From the NCBI GenBank assembly GCA_037446255.1, contig JBBIIY010000016.1, positions 1 through 23,034 on the forward strand: a DNA stretch of 23,034 bases, in the 5' to 3' direction. The stretch's first letter is position 1. Every line of letters starts with the position of its first letter. The stretch is from Lithacetigena sp037446255 [NCBI: Coprothermobacterota bacterium] (GTDB taxonomy: Bacteria; Coprothermobacterota; HKB111). Of this stretch, positions 147-17,029 are shown piece after piece. A model generated the notes under the pieces. That model saw nothing but the letters and a program-made list of their open reading frames with translations, was not told where the DNA came from and ran no database searches. The position numbers and the translations under genes were made by a program.

Positions 147-680
147 ATGGAATATAGGGACGAAATTATTAATGTTAGCTGGAATGAATATTTTAAGATT
201 ATTTCAAATCTAATCTATAAAATATCAGATTCTGACTTTAAACCCAATCAGGTAATCTGTATTTCCCGAGGTGGGCTTATACCTGGAGATATAATTTCCA
301 GAACACTGAAACTTCCCCTGGCTGTTCTATCAGCTTCCAGATACAGACCAGATGTTGCCTATAACACGGACAAGCCAAGAGAAGTGATGTTAAGCCAGGA
401 TTTAACCTCAGCTTATTTTCTTAATTCTAAAGTATTATTCGTTGATGATTTAACCGACTCTGGTACTACCATGAAAAGATCTTTAGAATGGCTAACACGC
501 TATTACCAGCCTTTTATCAAGGAAATAAGGACTGCTGTCTTGTGGCATAAAGAAATATCTTCCTTCACTCCTGACTACCATTCGGTATTTATTCCACTTG
601 ATAAGGATGGTAAATGCCCCTGGATACTACAACCTCAGGATACTCTCGCCCAAGAAATTATTGAATTCAAACAGAATTAA
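147..680 (+). CDS. Purine-type phosphoribosyltransferase
   Basis: This is a cytosolic type I phosphoribosyltransferase of 177 residues. It probably transfers the phosphoribosyl group of PRPP to a purine base such as xanthine, guanine or hypoxanthine in salvage. The PRPP-binding loop VLFVDDLTDSGTT (residues 96-108) has the canonical two acidic residues followed by the TDSGTT turn. An upstream SRGGLIPG stretch (40-47) matches the pyrophosphate-loop region. The late segment PDYHSVF...CPWILQPQD resembles the base-binding tail of archaeal and bacterial Gpt/Hpt-like enzymes, where a WI motif stacks on the purine. AAGGA lies about 6 bases before the ATG, supporting this start. The 3' end overlaps the convergent membrane-protein gene by 14 bases. 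Base specificity is inferred; a regulatory PRTase-like protein is the main alternative. Confidence 0.82.
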   Translation: MEYRDEIINVSWNEYFKIISNLIYKISDSDFKPNQVICISRGGLIPGDIISRTLKLPLAVLSASRYRPDVAYNTDKPREVMLSQDLTSAYFLNSKVLFVDDLTDSGTTMKRSLEWLTRYYQPFIKEIRTAVLWHKEISSFTPDYHSVFIPLDKDGKCPWILQPQDTLAQEIIEFKQN

Positions 681-1041
681 TCTTTTTATCGGTCTTAAAA
701 GCTAATTTTAGATAGTAAATATGTATAGGCAGCAAAACCAGAAAGGAAAGGGTATTAGTTAACATATTTCGTAGATAAATTCTCTTTTGCATCTTTTGAC
801 TTTCTTCTTTTCTTTCCTCAAAGTAAGCCTGCATCTCTTTATCAGTATAAGTTATTTCTGATTTGTCAGGACCGATACTATAGAATCCCCGGCTAATAGG
901 AGTAGCTGGACCATCCATTTCTCCCCCTAAAAAATAATCAGGAATTGACCTCACTAAACCGATAAAATTAGAAAGTAATACCACAAAAGTAATAAGCGCT
1001 ACCAAATATAAATAAATCCGGGAAATAGACCAATTACCCAT
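667..1041 (-). CDS. Small two-helix membrane protein, paralog A
   Basis: I do not recognise a named family with certainty. The 124-residue protein has an N-terminal hydrophobic helix (about residues 9-30, YLYLVALITFVVLL), a polar middle rich in charged residues, and a second hydrophobic helix near the end (about 93-115). This suggests two membrane passes with the middle on one face. It is clearly a paralog of the gene just upstream on the same strand: 23 of the first 37 residues are identical, and both keep NW near the start, LVRSIP after helix 1 and VLLPIHI in helix 2. GGGAGG sits 5 bases before the ATG. The arrangement resembles small DUF5671-like membrane proteins, but that assignment is only a guess. 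Its stop lies inside the end of the phosphoribosyltransferase gene on the other strand. Confidence 0.72.
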   Translation of the reverse strand: MGNWSISRIYLYLVALITFVVLLSNFIGLVRSIPDYFLGGEMDGPATPISRGFYSIGPDKSEITYTDKEMQAYFEERKEESQKMQKRIYLRNMLTNTLSFLVLLPIHIYYLKLAFKTDKKINSV

Positions 1042-1114
1042 TTATGCCTCCCAAATCGGTATAAATTAATACCAGTTTTATTTTTGTATAAATAACCAAT
1101 CTTGGAAATTATTT

Positions 1115-1495
1115 CTATGCTTCGCTCTTTCTGGCTAATCTAAAGTAAAAAATATGAATGGGAAGTAAAACCAAAAATGACACTCCGTTGGTTACAATAT
1201 TCTTAAGTGTATAGGACTTTTGTCTATTTATATCTTCCTGGTATCTTTCATCAATTAATTTTTTAATTTCTTCTTCAGAAAATTCTGGTGTTTCTTTGGT
1301 ATCGGGATACTTGCCATACTTTCTCATATACAGCTCATTCCTGGCATCCATATAACTCATTTTATAACTATAACTTACATCAAAAAGATATTCAGGAATT
1401 GACCTTACCAGTTGGATAAAATTAAATAAAACTACTATAAATGTAATGAGAGCAACCATATAAACATACACCTTAGCTACTGTCCAATTACTCAT
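1115..1495 (-). CDS. Small two-helix membrane protein, paralog B
   Basis: This 126-residue protein is the upstream member of the tandem pair. It has the same plan as its neighbour: helix 1 at about residues 9-30 (YVYMVALITFIVVL), LVRSIP at the membrane edge, a longer charged middle with an acidic/basic stretch (EFSEEEIKKLIDERYQEDI), and helix 2 near residues 98-121 ending in VLLPIHIFYF. The ends are conserved between the copies while the middles differ in length and sequence, so the soluble loop has diverged fastest. AAGGAGG lies 7 bases before the ATG. A 73-base gap separates it from paralog A, and the two are probably co-transcribed from the extended -10 promoter just upstream. Function is unknown. 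A role as a paired membrane complex is possible but unproven. Confidence 0.74.
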   Translation of the reverse strand: MSNWTVAKVYVYMVALITFIVVLFNFIQLVRSIPEYLFDVSYSYKMSYMDARNELYMRKYGKYPDTKETPEFSEEEIKKLIDERYQEDINRQKSYTLKNIVTNGVSFLVLLPIHIFYFRLARKSEA

Positions 1496-5165: not shown

Positions 5166-6086
5166 ATGAATAATACCGAATTTTCCCACCTTGATGGAAA
5201 AGGACGAGCAAAAATGATTGACATATCTTCCAAAAATAGTTCCCTGAGAATTGCCCGAGCACGAGGTATAGTCAGATTTAAAGAAAAACTACTCCCCAGA
5301 ATTCTTCAGGGTGAAACTCCCAAAGGTGATGTGTTGACTGTAGCCAAAATAGCAGGCATTCAGGGGGCGAAAAATACCCACCGGTTGATTCCGCTAACTC
5401 ACGCATTAGCTTTATCATTGGTGGATATCAACTTTAAAGCCATCAATGAAAACGAGTTGGAAGTAGTCAGCGAGGTCAGGTACGAAGGGAAGACCGGGGT
5501 GGAAATGGAAGCCCTAACCGCAGTAGCAGTTTGCTCTTTAACCATTTACGATATGTGTAAATCCTTGGATAAAGAGATAGAAATATCTGATATTGCCTTA
5601 ATATATAAAGAAGGTGGAAAAAGCGGTATTTTCCGAAAAGAAATAGGAACAATTTACTCATTAAATACCAGCCTAAAAAAGGGAGGGAAAAAATTCCCTG
5701 TAGAAGAATCGATATTTGTTAAAGGTAAAGGTATTGAAGGAGATGCCCATGCTGGTCCAGGAGATAAACAGGTAAGTCTGTTATCGTTGGAAAGTATTCA
5801 TAAAATGAAAGCTAAGGGCATAACGGTAGAGCCGGGTTCCTTTGCGGAAAATGTTACCGTTGCTGGATTCAGTGTGTACCTCTTACCAATAGATACTATA
5901 CTACATCTGGGAAAGGAAGCTAAACTTAAAGTAACCCGACTGGGAAAAGAATGTGTTAATCCTTGCTCCATTGGAAAACAGATAGGTGATTGCGTGATGC
6001 CCAGGGAAGGTATATATGCTGAAGTTATAAAGGGTGGTAAGGTTAAAAGAGGGGATGAAATAATTGCCGTGGTGAAGCATAAATGA
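5166..6086 (+). CDS. moaC: MoaC-MOSC fusion protein, molybdenum/tungsten cofactor synthesis
   Basis: This protein of 306 residues joins two domains. Residues 1-157 are MoaC, which makes cyclic pyranopterin monophosphate from the MoaA product: FSHLD at the start, KGDVLTVAKIAG with Lys53, GVEMEAL with Glu113 and Glu115, YDMCK with Asp129 and Lys132, and GGKSG. The catalytic histidine is kept (His79), but the usual LCHP setting has become LTHA. Residues about 160-306 are a MOSC domain, a fold that binds sulfur or finished cofactor in sulfurases: GIEGDAHAGPG, GSFAENV, and a cysteine-rich run with Cys263, Cys267 and Cys276 before PREGIYAEV. The ATG has AGAGGG 11 bases upstream. The downstream mogA overlaps by 4 bases. 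The fusion suggests that early and late steps are coupled. The MOSC partner is unknown; cofactor carrying or sulfuration is an inference. Confidence 0.92.
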   Translation: MNNTEFSHLDGKGRAKMIDISSKNSSLRIARARGIVRFKEKLLPRILQGETPKGDVLTVAKIAGIQGAKNTHRLIPLTHALALSLVDINFKAINENELEVVSEVRYEGKTGVEMEALTAVAVCSLTIYDMCKSLDKEIEISDIALIYKEGGKSGIFRKEIGTIYSLNTSLKKGGKKFPVEESIFVKGKGIEGDAHAGPGDKQVSLLSLESIHKMKAKGITVEPGSFAENVTVAGFSVYLLPIDTILHLGKEAKLKVTRLGKECVNPCSIGKQIGDCVMPREGIYAEVIKGGKVKRGDEIIAVVKHK

Positions 6087-14335: not shown

Positions 14336-17029
14336 TTGGAGCAGGAGAACAAATTAACCGAAACTTTATCTCATGATAGTAAACTAAAAACATATATTCT
14401 ACGCTTTCTACCAATCATACTGATTATCGGGTTATCCCTCTTTATAAGAGTTTATATGCCCTGGGGCGTTTCTGTAAGAGATGGTTTCGTCAGAATTGCT
14501 GCTGATGATGCTCCTTATCATCTGAGATTGATAGAAAATACGGTACACAACTTCCCCCAAAGAATTTATTACGACCCTTTTGTTTTCTTTAAAGATTATA
14601 CTATCTCTTATGTGGGTCCACTGTTCACCTGGCTTGGAAGTTCCTTTGCTTTCCTGTTACAATTCCTATTCTTCGGTGGAGGAACTCCTACTCGCTATAC
14701 CATAGAACTGGCAAGCTCACTTTTGCCTGCTTTTGGTGGAACTATAATCGTTTATCTTGGGTATCTTACTTCCTTATTGTTATTTCAAAACCGAAAAACT
14801 GCTTTGCTTTCTGCTTTGATTTTAGCTACCATGCCTGGTCAGTTTTTAGGAAGGACTTTATTTGGTTTCGCTGACCATCATTTCCTGGAAACCCTATTTT
14901 CCCTATTGGCTTTTTACTTTTTAATGCTTGCTTTGAGAGAAATTGAAAATTTTGATGTTTCTGACTCTGCTGATAATCAATCTCATTTTAAATTAATTAC
15001 TCTCTATTCTTTATCAGGAGGAATAGCCCTTACCCTGTACCTGTTGTCCTGGGTGGGAGCAGCTTTCTTGCTTCCCATGTTATTAGTTTTTCTATTCATC
15101 ATCTTTATAATGAGACACCTGCAGAGTAAATCAACCTCTCCTTTGTTCATATCTATCTTTTTCTTTCTCATCCCTCCTTTTCTGGTTTCTCTGCTCCTTT
15201 TGAGACTAAATGGCCTTGAGCAATTTTTCTACGGTACTTTAATCTTACCTCTCTCATTTACTATGCTATTTATTTTAATAATGAATTTCCTTTCCAAATT
15301 ATTAAACAGTTTACAACTGAATAAATTCCTCTACCCCTTGATTTTCGTTTTTCTTTTTGTTCTCGGTCTGGGAATGCTTAACCTTCCCCTGATCAATTCG
15401 CTATTCCAGGCACCGCTTAATTCAATGCTAAACCTGTTATTTCCCACCGGTCAACTTGCCACCGTTGCCGAAGTTCAACCGATGTTTTTCGTAAATGGTT
15501 TGTTATCTCTTGATTCCGCCTGGGCAAACTTTACGACAAACCTATATTTAGCTTTTATTTCTCTGATTGCTCTCACCTTCATCACCTTAAAAAAGAAAAA
15601 TAGCCTGTTAATTTTCCTGGTTATCTGGAGCTTGTACATGTTAATGGCTACCAATGCCCAAAACAGGTTCGCTTATTACTTAGCCGTTAACATTGCCCTA
15701 CTTTCAGGTTTTGCTGGTATACACATTTTCCAATGGATACTTAATCAAATGAACAAATATGTGGAAAGTGGAAGTTCGGTTTTTGGAGTTTTTAAGTCTG
15801 CGAAAATCATTAAAGTTTTACTATGGATCTGGTTGTTGGTGGTATTGATATATCCCAATTCATTAATAAGTACTTATAGCGCAAGTAGAGGACTGGGCAC
15901 TCACCCTGATTGGTACGACTCCCTAAGCTGGTTAAGCAACAATACTCCATCTCCAGGATTGAGTTATCATGGTACCTATCAACTACCCGAAAAGGGAGAA
16001 GATTATATCTACCCGCCTGGTTCATACAGCGTCATGTCCTGGTGGGATTTCGGTTATATGATCGCTTACTATGGATTAAGAATGCCTGTGGCTAACCCGG
16101 GGGGTTTTGGAGTAGGTAGTTATAGCAATGTTATGTTTTTAGACCTGAATAAAGACGGTCAATTCCAGAAAGAAGAACCACTAATAGTAGATATTAACGA
16201 GGATGGATTTTTTGGAAGTAGCGATATTTTACTATCAGGAACTAAACCTTCAGACAACCAGAAATTAACTAATTTCACCACCGACTATATGTATTATGAT
16301 TACCACCAGGATAAAATGTTCAATCCCCTTGAACCAATAATTTATGATAAAGACAAAAACTTTACCTTTTCTGAAGGGGACGAACTGCTTTATGGGGCTT
16401 TGACTCCTTCCCTGGGGAGTAAGTTGAGATTCATCTCTCTCAACCCCGGTGTTGCTCCTTTCTTTGTGGCTACCGATGTGAAAACTGCTCAAGACCTGCT
16501 TAAATATTACAACACCAGGTATATTATTACCAGCCTTTCTATGGCCACCAGCAGGTTCTGGGCGATGGCCCAGTTAGGTGCGGGTAGTAGGTCAAAATTT
16601 ATTGGTGACTTCCTTATGGAAACAGTCACGGAAGGTGGGGTGGAAATTAAACCGATTACCATTTACTACCCCGAATATTATAAAACTATAATTGCCAGAT
16701 TGCATTTTTTCAAAGGAGAAGAAGTAATTCCCTATAATTCTACCTGGGTAATAGCCTATGAGATCAAAAATGAAGATAACAAGACCTATAAAATTATCAC
16801 CAACGAATGGCTTTTTAAAACTTATTACGAAGCGGTTGAATTTATTAAAAAACAGGAAGGGACTAATTATTTAATTGTGGGAAAATCTCCCAACATAAGT
16901 CCGGTACCCTTAGAAAAATTAGAAAACTTTAAAGCGGTTTATGAAACTATTAATACAGTGCTTAAGTTCCGTCATGACGATAGAAAACTAAGGGGAATCA
17001 TAATTTTTGAATATCTTGGTTTGAAGTAG
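14336..17029 (+). CDS. STT3/AglB-type oligosaccharyltransferase with EF-hand-like module
   Basis: This large membrane enzyme of 897 residues should transfer a lipid-linked glycan to asparagine in secreted proteins. The N-terminal half is a multi-helix membrane domain with the acidic metal motif in the first outer loop (Asp57-Asp58, DDAPYHLR), a second acidic site (DHHFLE, Asp180 to Glu185), and the TVAEVQP segment matching the outer-loop motif that contacts the acceptor. The soluble half opens with the WWDFG sequon-binding motif at 569-573 (WWDYG in most relatives). Right after it, residues 603-682 hold four EF-hand-like loops in two pairs. Each loop has the Asp-x-Asn/Asp-x-Asp/Asn spacing and a final acid. 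AAAGGAG precedes a TTG start. It heads a rhamnose, flippase and glycosyltransferase cluster. N-linkage is inferred from the family. Confidence 0.9.
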   Translation: MEQENKLTETLSHDSKLKTYILRFLPIILIIGLSLFIRVYMPWGVSVRDGFVRIAADDAPYHLRLIENTVHNFPQRIYYDPFVFFKDYTISYVGPLFTWLGSSFAFLLQFLFFGGGTPTRYTIELASSLLPAFGGTIIVYLGYLTSLLLFQNRKTALLSALILATMPGQFLGRTLFGFADHHFLETLFSLLAFYFLMLALREIENFDVSDSADNQSHFKLITLYSLSGGIALTLYLLSWVGAAFLLPMLLVFLFIIFIMRHLQSKSTSPLFISIFFFLIPPFLVSLLLLRLNGLEQFFYGTLILPLSFTMLFILIMNFLSKLLNSLQLNKFLYPLIFVFLFVLGLGMLNLPLINSLFQAPLNSMLNLLFPTGQLATVAEVQPMFFVNGLLSLDSAWANFTTNLYLAFISLIALTFITLKKKNSLLIFLVIWSLYMLMATNAQNRFAYYLAVNIALLSGFAGIHIFQWILNQMNKYVESGSSVFGVFKSAKIIKVLLWIWLLVVLIYPNSLISTYSASRGLGTHPDWYDSLSWLSNNTPSPGLSYHGTYQLPEKGEDYIYPPGSYSVMSWWDFGYMIAYYGLRMPVANPGGFGVGSYSNVMFLDLNKDGQFQKEEPLIVDINEDGFFGSSDILLSGTKPSDNQKLTNFTTDYMYYDYHQDKMFNPLEPIIYDKDKNFTFSEGDELLYGALTPSLGSKLRFISLNPGVAPFFVATDVKTAQDLLKYYNTRYIITSLSMATSRFWAMAQLGAGSRSKFIGDFLMETVTEGGVEIKPITIYYPEYYKTIIARLHFFKGEEVIPYNSTWVIAYEIKNEDNKTYKIITNEWLFKTYYEAVEFIKKQEGTNYLIVGKSPNISPVPLEKLENFKAVYETINTVLKFRHDDRKLRGIIIFEYLGLK

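What the first reader, a model, noticed from the sequence alone, without database searches (positions are those of the whole stretch)
16142..16381. Oligosaccharyltransferase with a duplicated four-loop EF-hand-like module after WWDFG
Residues 603-614, 619-630, 655-666 and 671-682 each fit the 12-residue EF-hand/dockerin loop: acids or Asn at 1, 3 and 5, hydrophobic at 8, acid at 12. The loops come in two pairs, each with exactly 16 residues start to start. The pairs align (D-x-N/H-x-D-x-x-F-x-x-x-E-P-x-I, then D...F...D.LL.G), so the module arose by tandem duplication. It is placed just after the sequon-recognition motif, where it could rigidify or gate the catalytic soluble domain in response to calcium. 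Known STT3/AglB proteins bind metal at the active site and sometimes calcium elsewhere, but a duplicated EF-hand-like insertion at this point is not something I know of.
Basis: partly seen in the sequence, partly recalled or inferred. Interest (0 to 1): 0.8.

Follow-up and report, generated by a model that had tools for sequence, protein, structure and literature searches.

The report
Calcium-loop insert in N-glycosylation enzyme
A protein-glycosylating membrane enzyme carries, beside the part that recognises its target sequence, an extra 105-residue piece with four calcium-type binding loops, and the same piece sits at the same place in a few archaeal versions of the enzyme, which suggests that calcium stabilises or tunes it.

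Summary
Window 14336-17029(+) encodes an 897-aa AglB/STT3-type oligosaccharyltransferase. Against A. fulgidus AglB-L it carries one clean insert, residues ~599-703 (nt 16130-16444), between the WWDFG helix and the DK-motif helix (123 residues where 49 aligned relatives have 12-25). The insert is two ~52-residue repeats, each with two 12-residue EF-type loops spaced 16 residues.

Over the 16 loops of the four proteins, position 1 is always Asp, 5 Asp/Asn, 8 Phe/Tyr, and 12 is Glu in odd and Asp in even loops. Between two archaeal carriers the insert is the best-conserved part (84% identity against 73% and 56%).

Most likely it is an extracytoplasmic four-site Ca2+ module that orders the mobile segment next to the sequon pocket. 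It is no true EF-hand: four residues between loops leave no room for helices. AlphaFold could not model it (pLDDT ~30), so calcium binding and any regulatory role are inferred. Literature searches list no description of such an insert.

The parts
14336..17029 (+). AglB/STT3-type oligosaccharyltransferase, 897 aa, TTG start after an AGGAG (by inspection)
   Evidence: Pfam STT3 55.2 bits (cut-off 24.5) and AglB_core-like 56.9 bits (cut-off 27); phmmer to A. fulgidus AglB-L 6e-65; AF2 model pLDDT 85 matches 7e9s/3wak/5gmy at Foldseek E 3e-34 to 2e-32
15461..15472 (+). TVAE (residues 376-379), the TIXE-motif equivalent of external loop 5
   Evidence: aligned with TIAE of AfAglB; E379 shared by 48 of 49 relatives
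16040..16054 (+). WWDFG (residues 569-573), Ser/Thr-pocket motif
   Evidence: W, W, D in 49 of 49 relatives
16094..16111 (+). NPGGFG (587-592), equivalent of the AfAglB-L hinge segment Asn568-Gly573
   Evidence: alignment; hinge described in PMC3703281
16130..16444 (+). the insert, residues ~599-703 (105 aa), two repeats of about 52 aa; absent from AfAglB-L
   Evidence: phmmer breaks at query 598/704 against chain 580/582; P588-F710 is 123 aa against 12-25 aa in 49 relatives; homologous inserts in three archaeal AglBs
16142..16177 (+). loop 1, residues 603-614
16190..16225 (+). loop 2, residues 619-630
16298..16333 (+). loop 3, residues 655-666
16346..16381 (+). loop 4, residues 671-682
16532..16555 (+). 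DK-motif region, residues 733-740, with unusual letters (S733, S735, R740)
   Evidence: D in 47 of 49, E in 29 of 49 and K in 39 of 49 relatives at these columns

Best explanation
The insert is a compact extracytoplasmic metal-binding module of the DxDxDG-loop kind: two tandem copies of a pair of 12-residue loops, probably with one Ca2+ per loop and strands or turns rather than EF helices between them. It interrupts the catalytic core domain of an AglB-type oligosaccharyltransferase in the stretch between the WWDYG helix and hinge and the DK-motif helix, the stretch that is mobile in known AglBs and whose motion appears needed for catalysis. Bound Ca2+ folds and stiffens the module, which anchors or limits the motion of that stretch and so stabilises the enzyme's sequon pocket outside the cell membrane; a chelator or low Ca2+ should lower stability or activity. 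Shown: the enzyme family, the insert and its boundaries, the loop pattern, the duplication, homologues at the same site, purifying selection between two archaeal carriers. Inferred: Ca2+ as the metal, four sites filled, the structural effect, and any effect on catalysis.
For: One clean insert at AfAglB 580/582. Loop pattern far beyond shuffles. Homologous insert at the same site in 3 archaeal AglBs, BLASTP E 5e-22 between window and G718 inserts. Invariant columns of the 4-row alignment include positions 1 and 12 of all four loops; all 16 loops keep D1, D/N5, F/Y8 and an E/D alternation at 12. The insert has the highest identity between two archaeal carriers: 87/104 against 191/262 (rest of soluble part) and 242/433 (before WWDYG), dN 0.087 and dS 0.67. 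Catalytic D58, D180, E379 kept. The segment after WWDYG in AglB is flexible, is the domain-swap hinge, and a disulfide that restricts flexibility abolished activity of P. furiosus AglB, as told in PMC3703281. Dx[DN]xDG loops bind Ca2+ in at least twelve families, and a four-Ca2+ insertion in an archaeal subtilisin is needed for folding, PMC3123361.
Against: No structure: AF2 gives pLDDT about 30 for the insert in the full-length model and 34 alone. No Pfam EF-hand or dockerin match above cut-off. Loops 3 and 4 of the window lack Gly at position 6 and loop 3 has His at 3. The profile of four inserts finds nothing convincing in PDB (best E 0.62), nor does the window insert alone (best E 0.24). 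None of the 80 AglB-type relatives has it. By dN/dS the insert (0.13) is like the rest of the soluble part (0.15). Mobility of the segment was shown in other AglBs, not here.
Confidence: 0.55

Rival explanations
1. A calcium switch: the module senses external Ca2+ and turns sequon binding or catalysis up or down, rather than being permanently filled.
For: Position beside the mobile WWDYG segment whose motion appears needed for activity (PMC3703281); conserved ligands. PMC3123361 names regulatory as well as structural roles for such loops.
Against: No regulatory data here. The nearest functional precedent found, a four-Ca2+ insertion in an archaeal subtilisin, acts in folding. Extracellular Ca2+ is usually high (general knowledge), which favours permanently filled sites.
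Confidence: 0.2
2. A docking module: like a dockerin, the paired loops bind a partner, such as an S-layer or secretion component or the acceptor protein, and Ca2+ only holds the fold.
For: Dockerins are paired Ca2+ loops that bind a protein (general knowledge); the stretch of loops 1-2 matches Dockerin_1 weakly (E 0.12-0.14).
Against: The dockerin match is under cut-off and not listed for the three archaeal inserts; loop spacing is 16 with no room for helices. A cohesin-like partner was not sought.
Confidence: 0.15
3. An acidic spacer with no metal role, tolerated at a permissive loop and kept by chance.
For: The site is a loop of variable length (12-25 aa in 49 relatives); AF2 does not fold the insert.
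Against: Ligand positions kept across 16 loops in four proteins; highest identity of the protein between two carriers, with dN/dS 0.13.
Confidence: 0.06
4. The segment is an ordinary part of all STT3 proteins, or an assembly artefact.
For: None found.
Against: Absent from AfAglB-L, from the 49 aligned relatives, from the 80 loci read and, by pattern, from the AglB frames among the 110 other loci then held; present in frame in three other genomes.
Confidence: 0.01

Closest known systems
A. fulgidus AglB-L (PDB 3waj, 5gmy, 7e9s)
   Same: whole enzyme architecture and catalytic motifs; best sequence and fold match
   Different: has no insert between residues 580 and 582; keeps E613/K618 of the DK motif, where the window has S735/R740
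IS (insertion) units of AglB/PglB
   Same: also extra units inside the catalytic core domain (PMC3703281)
   Different: described as beta-barrel-like in P. furiosus, P. horikoshii and C. jejuni; the word calcium does not occur in that paper
Four-Ca2+ insertion of Thermococcus kodakaraensis subtilisin
   Same: a Dx[DN]xDG-bearing insertion in an archaeal enzyme, needed for folding (PMC3123361)
   Different: 25 residues, another enzyme; no tandem duplication is mentioned in the passages seen
GEVED domain (PF20009)
   Same: all four inserts match it at E <= 1, one above its cut-off (G740, 27.9 against 24.4 bits)
   Different: the window insert scores 16.8 bits, below cut-off; only profile positions 3-51 of 78 are matched
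EF-hand and type I dockerin
   Same: 12-residue loop with D1, D/N3, D/N5, hydrophobic 8, acid 12
   Different: loops 16 residues apart leave 4 residues between them, no room for helices; no Pfam match above cut-off

Membership tests
STT3/AglB/PglB oligosaccharyltransferase | Pfam STT3 and core-domain match above cut-off | tested here: met
   STT3 55.2 over 24.5 bits; AglB_core-like 56.9 over 27; STT3-PglB_core 20.6 under its cut-off of 23
STT3/AglB/PglB oligosaccharyltransferase | catalytic acids of the two DXD-type motifs, TIXE Glu, WWDYG | tested here: met
   D58, D180, H182, E379, W569, W570, D571 present and shared with relatives
STT3/AglB/PglB oligosaccharyltransferase | DK or MI motif of the Ser/Thr pocket | tested here: inconclusive
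   window has S733, S735, R740 where most relatives have D, E, K; Arg for Lys may serve
STT3/AglB/PglB oligosaccharyltransferase | fold | tested here: met
   AF2 model, confident outside the insert, matches AglB structures, Foldseek E 3e-34
EF-hand | 12-residue loop with ligands at 1, 3, 5, 12 | tested here: met
   4 loops here, 16 over four proteins; Gly at 6 only in loops 1 and 2 of the window
EF-hand | helix on each side of the loop | tested here: not met
   only 4 residues between loops 1-2 and 3-4; the insert models show no helix either but are of too low confidence to count
EF-hand | Ca2+ binding | not testable with these tools
   needs protein
Dockerin type I | Pfam Dockerin_1 above cut-off | tested here: not met
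   13 bits, cut-off 22.9; not listed for the three archaeal inserts
GEVED domain | Pfam GEVED above cut-off | tested here: inconclusive
   window 16.8, G718 14.2, G749 18.5, G740 27.9 bits; cut-off 24.4

The most novel reading that the evidence does not exclude
A calcium-gated oligosaccharyltransferase: a duplicated four-site Ca2+ module, shared by a bacterium and a lineage of archaea, couples external calcium to the opening and closing of the sequon pocket, so that N-glycosylation is allosterically controlled by Ca2+.
Probability: 0.18. Interest if true: 0.85.

Novelty: new variant of a known kind. Interest (0 to 1): 0.6.

Why it matters
The motion of the WWDYG segment is thought to be part of the oligosaccharyltransferase cycle but is hard to manipulate. 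A natural metal-binding module spliced beside that segment gives a handle: Ca2+ or a chelator could tune it reversibly in a single-subunit enzyme. It also suggests how membrane enzymes gain Ca2+ loops in extracytoplasmic parts, and a matching insert in bacterial and archaeal AglBs whose host sequences do not group together on a quick tree raises a question of transfer, ancient presence with loss, or repeated gain at one site.

Tried and rejected
Fold of the insert: AF2 of the full protein with 49 relatives left the insert at pLDDT about 30; no row of that alignment had it. The insert alone gave pLDDT 34. Both inconclusive, and no fold search was made with the second model. The three archaeal carriers were not handed to the folder because its stated rule does not list loci of the genome search.

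Relatives: the first genome-contig scan with P0001 found none; the second with A1 kept 80 of 267. The viral-contig scan found none; plasmids gave one haloarchaeal OST matched over residues 25-602 only; the insert alone gave nothing convincing in plasmids (E 6 and 8) or in 147 genomes of the class of G001 (two at E 0.03-0.05; no paired loops in those two loci). The recalled consensus gave no match in plasmids or phages at E 1e-4, and nothing significant in PDB (best E 0.33). In the phylum of G001 it rang in 4 of 101 genomes at E <= 0.001, in very long frames (2119-6426 aa), some with DxNxNG-type loops; I set these aside as general loop-rich surface proteins. In Pfam that consensus itself just reaches GEVED (24.5 against 24.4 bits).

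NCBIfam was run on the four inserts only (none for the window insert, four unrelated weak ones for others).

Organism of the window: not identified. No own genome is held; ProRS rang in 0 of 171 genomes of the phylum of G001 at a very strict 1e-180, which says little. That it is a bacterium is inferred from gene content (for instance a ProRS with an editing domain inside the catalytic domain).

Single origin of insert-bearing hosts: AU test p 0.0098 against window plus three carriers as one clade, insert cut out. I named the group after seeing the tree, the tree was a quick one, and the window has a long branch, so this is a lead only.

A first pattern scan used a misplaced spacing and missed even the window; it was corrected.

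Full report
WHAT IS THERE. Window 14336-17029 on the + strand is one open frame of 897 codons, TTG start. It is an oligosaccharyltransferase of the AglB/STT3 kind: Pfam STT3 55.2 bits (cut-off 24.5), AglB_core-like 56.9 bits (cut-off 27), phmmer 6.2e-65 to A. fulgidus AglB-L. The AF2 model with 49 relatives has mean pLDDT 85.1 and its best PDB matches are AfAglB 7e9s, 3wak, 5gmy, 3waj (E 2.7e-34 to 3.1e-28), then eukaryotic STT3 and PglB. The catalytic letters are kept: D58 in 44 of 49 relatives (the other 5 have a gap), D180 49 of 49, H182 46 of 49, E379 48 of 49, WWD 49 of 49. It is followed by a nucleotidyltransferase and rml-type genes, a Polysacc_synt-type flippase and a methyltransferase (rmlD, B and C named by inspection only), which fits a glycan pathway.

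THE INSERT. The AfAglB alignment runs query 27-598 to chain 16-580 and then query 704-815 to chain 582-708, so residues about 599-703 (nt 16130-16444) are extra. From P588 to F710 the window has 123 residues; the 49 relatives aligned have 12 to 25, median 16 (49 of the 80 loci were aligned). In one search I read up to 190 residues from WWD in all 80 loci; none shows the insert. Three of them (L014, L065, L075) run only 35-88 residues past WWD, but past the site. A paired-loop pattern finds the window twice and, in the 110 other loci then held (1.28 Mb with the window), only two other frames, one on the strand opposite the AglB (L042) and one low-complexity (L059).

THE LOOPS. The strict loop pattern occurs four times in the protein, all here; no shuffle of the insert (20000) or of the whole protein (3000) reaches four. 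The halves align with score 63; shuffles average 21 (0 of 3000 reach it); with ligand positions fixed 7 of 3000 do. Loops of a pair start 16 residues apart, so 4 residues lie between them: this is not helix-loop-helix.

HOMOLOGUES. A query built from a repeat consensus that I recalled, not from a call, rang in 1 of 147 genomes of the phylum of G005 (the Methanocellales MAG of L001) at E <= 1e-6: G718, E 1.5e-15. That frame is an AglB with the same kind of insert at the same site, after NPFQAGIGG and before PGACTF. BLASTP of the two inserts: 38/104 identical, E 5e-22. A two-row profile then searched the class of G718: 3 of 58 genomes at E <= 0.001, G718 (a row of the profile), G749 (4.1e-47) and G740 (3.1e-25); both new ones are AglBs with the insert at the same site. 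The four-row profile A3 rang in 3 of 344 genomes of that phylum at 1e-5, the same three, which are rows of the profile, in 0 of 350 of the phylum of G001 (the Dehalococcoidia MAG of L003) at 1e-5, and in 2 of 179 of the phylum of G003 (a Phycisphaerales MAG) at 1e-4, outside AglB. These are samples drawn from larger groups except for the class of 58. Searches with the whole protein in 294 genomes of the class of G001 and 199 of the phylum of G003 gave 19 and 1 genomes at their E limits (1e-60, 1e-50), at 30-38% identity; no closer relative came up.

CONSTRAINT. In A3 positions 1 and 12 of all four loops are invariant. Over 16 loops position 1 is D 16 of 16, 5 is D/N 16 of 16, 8 is F/Y 16 of 16, 12 is E in all 8 odd and D in all 8 even loops; position 3 is N, D or, once, H. 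Three of the four proteins are archaeal relatives of each other, so these are not sixteen independent draws. Between G718 and G749 the insert is 87/104 identical, the rest of the soluble part 191/262, the part before WWDYG 242/433; dN/dS figures are 0.087/0.669, 0.235/1.6 and 0.352/1.566. By ratio the insert (0.13) is close to the soluble part (0.15); its lower dS means part of its similarity may come from composition or conversion. Between window and carriers the insert is 31-39% identical, much like the rest of the soluble part (34-42% over the locally aligned columns).

WHERE IT SITS. In AfAglB-L the segment Asn568-Gly573 after WWDYG is the domain-swap hinge; the WWDYG motif and following helix are dynamic in AfAglB-S2 by NMR, and an engineered disulfide restricting flexibility abolished P. 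furiosus AglB activity until cleaved (PMC3703281, parts 1-3 of 4 of the text read, and passages; the primary paper was not seen). The insert begins 7 residues after the equivalent hinge (587-592) and ends just before the next core helix (707-711 in the model).

MECHANISM. Dx[DN]xDG loops bind Ca2+ in at least twelve families, and in an archaeal subtilisin a four-Ca2+ insertion is needed for folding (PMC3123361: abstract, passages and section 7 seen). By that analogy I take the insert to be a Ca2+-folded brace beside the sequon pocket. Gating is possible but has no direct support.

WHAT THE MODULE IS AKIN TO. All four inserts match GEVED at E <= 1; one passes its cut-off (G740, 27.9 bits). EF-hand_5 and Dockerin_1 match the window insert only below cut-off. 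The two other proteins hit by A3 are a 2783-residue open frame (L130; nothing above a Pfam cut-off) and an AI-2E family transporter (PF01594, 160 bits) with a loop-rich stretch ahead of its best-matched region (L131). So loops of this kind occur in other proteins too, one of them a membrane protein.

HISTORY. On a quick tree of 41 rows with the insert cut out (the window, three archaeal carriers and 37 of 74 relatives of 680 aa or more), the three archaeal carriers form one clade (SH-aLRT 100) next to Methanophagales and Methanosarcinales MAG AglBs (95); the window stands apart on a long branch. One clade of all four carriers: p-AU 0.0098; window with the 18 bacterial rows: p-AU 0.31, not rejected. 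Transfer, ancient presence with loss, and repeated gain stay open.

LITERATURE. Searches for AglB/STT3 with calcium, EF-hand, dockerin or insertion list no paper whose title or abstract start describes such an insert; only open-licence papers are held, and most of those listed were not opened. PMC8342417 and PMC7226087 were searched for passages only and do not hold the word calcium.

LIMITS. No structure of the insert, no metal test, organism unknown, three archaeal carriers only, one of them (G749) in a frame that looks broken upstream and one (G740) on a 4.4-kb contig.

Noticed in passing
window 16532-16555: The DK-motif region is unusual: S733 where 47 of 49 relatives have D (2 have N), S735 where 29 of 49 have E, R740 where 39 of 49 have K. 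The Ser/Thr pocket may be altered.
   Followed up: partly
L127 (G740), AglB frame: Upstream of the TIXE-type motif, this archaeal AglB carries a zinc-finger-like CPICG...HIRIKH stretch, by inspection.
   Followed up: no
L131:1685-3052: An AI-2E family transporter (PF01594, 160 bits) with a stretch of similar paired acidic loops ahead of the best-matched region.
   Followed up: partly
L130:1762-10107: A large open frame with two paired-loop stretches similar to the insert, otherwise without a Pfam match above cut-off.
   Followed up: partly
L120/L126 inserts: The two halves of these archaeal inserts resemble each other more (51% and 68%) than they resemble the window's halves (29-41%), which hints at conversion or renewed duplication.
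   Followed up: no
window 5166-6086: MoaC fused to a MOSC domain in one frame.
   Followed up: no
window 667-1495, - strand: Two adjacent short membrane-protein-like frames (124 and 126 aa) alike in sequence, a likely tandem duplicate, by inspection.
   Followed up: no
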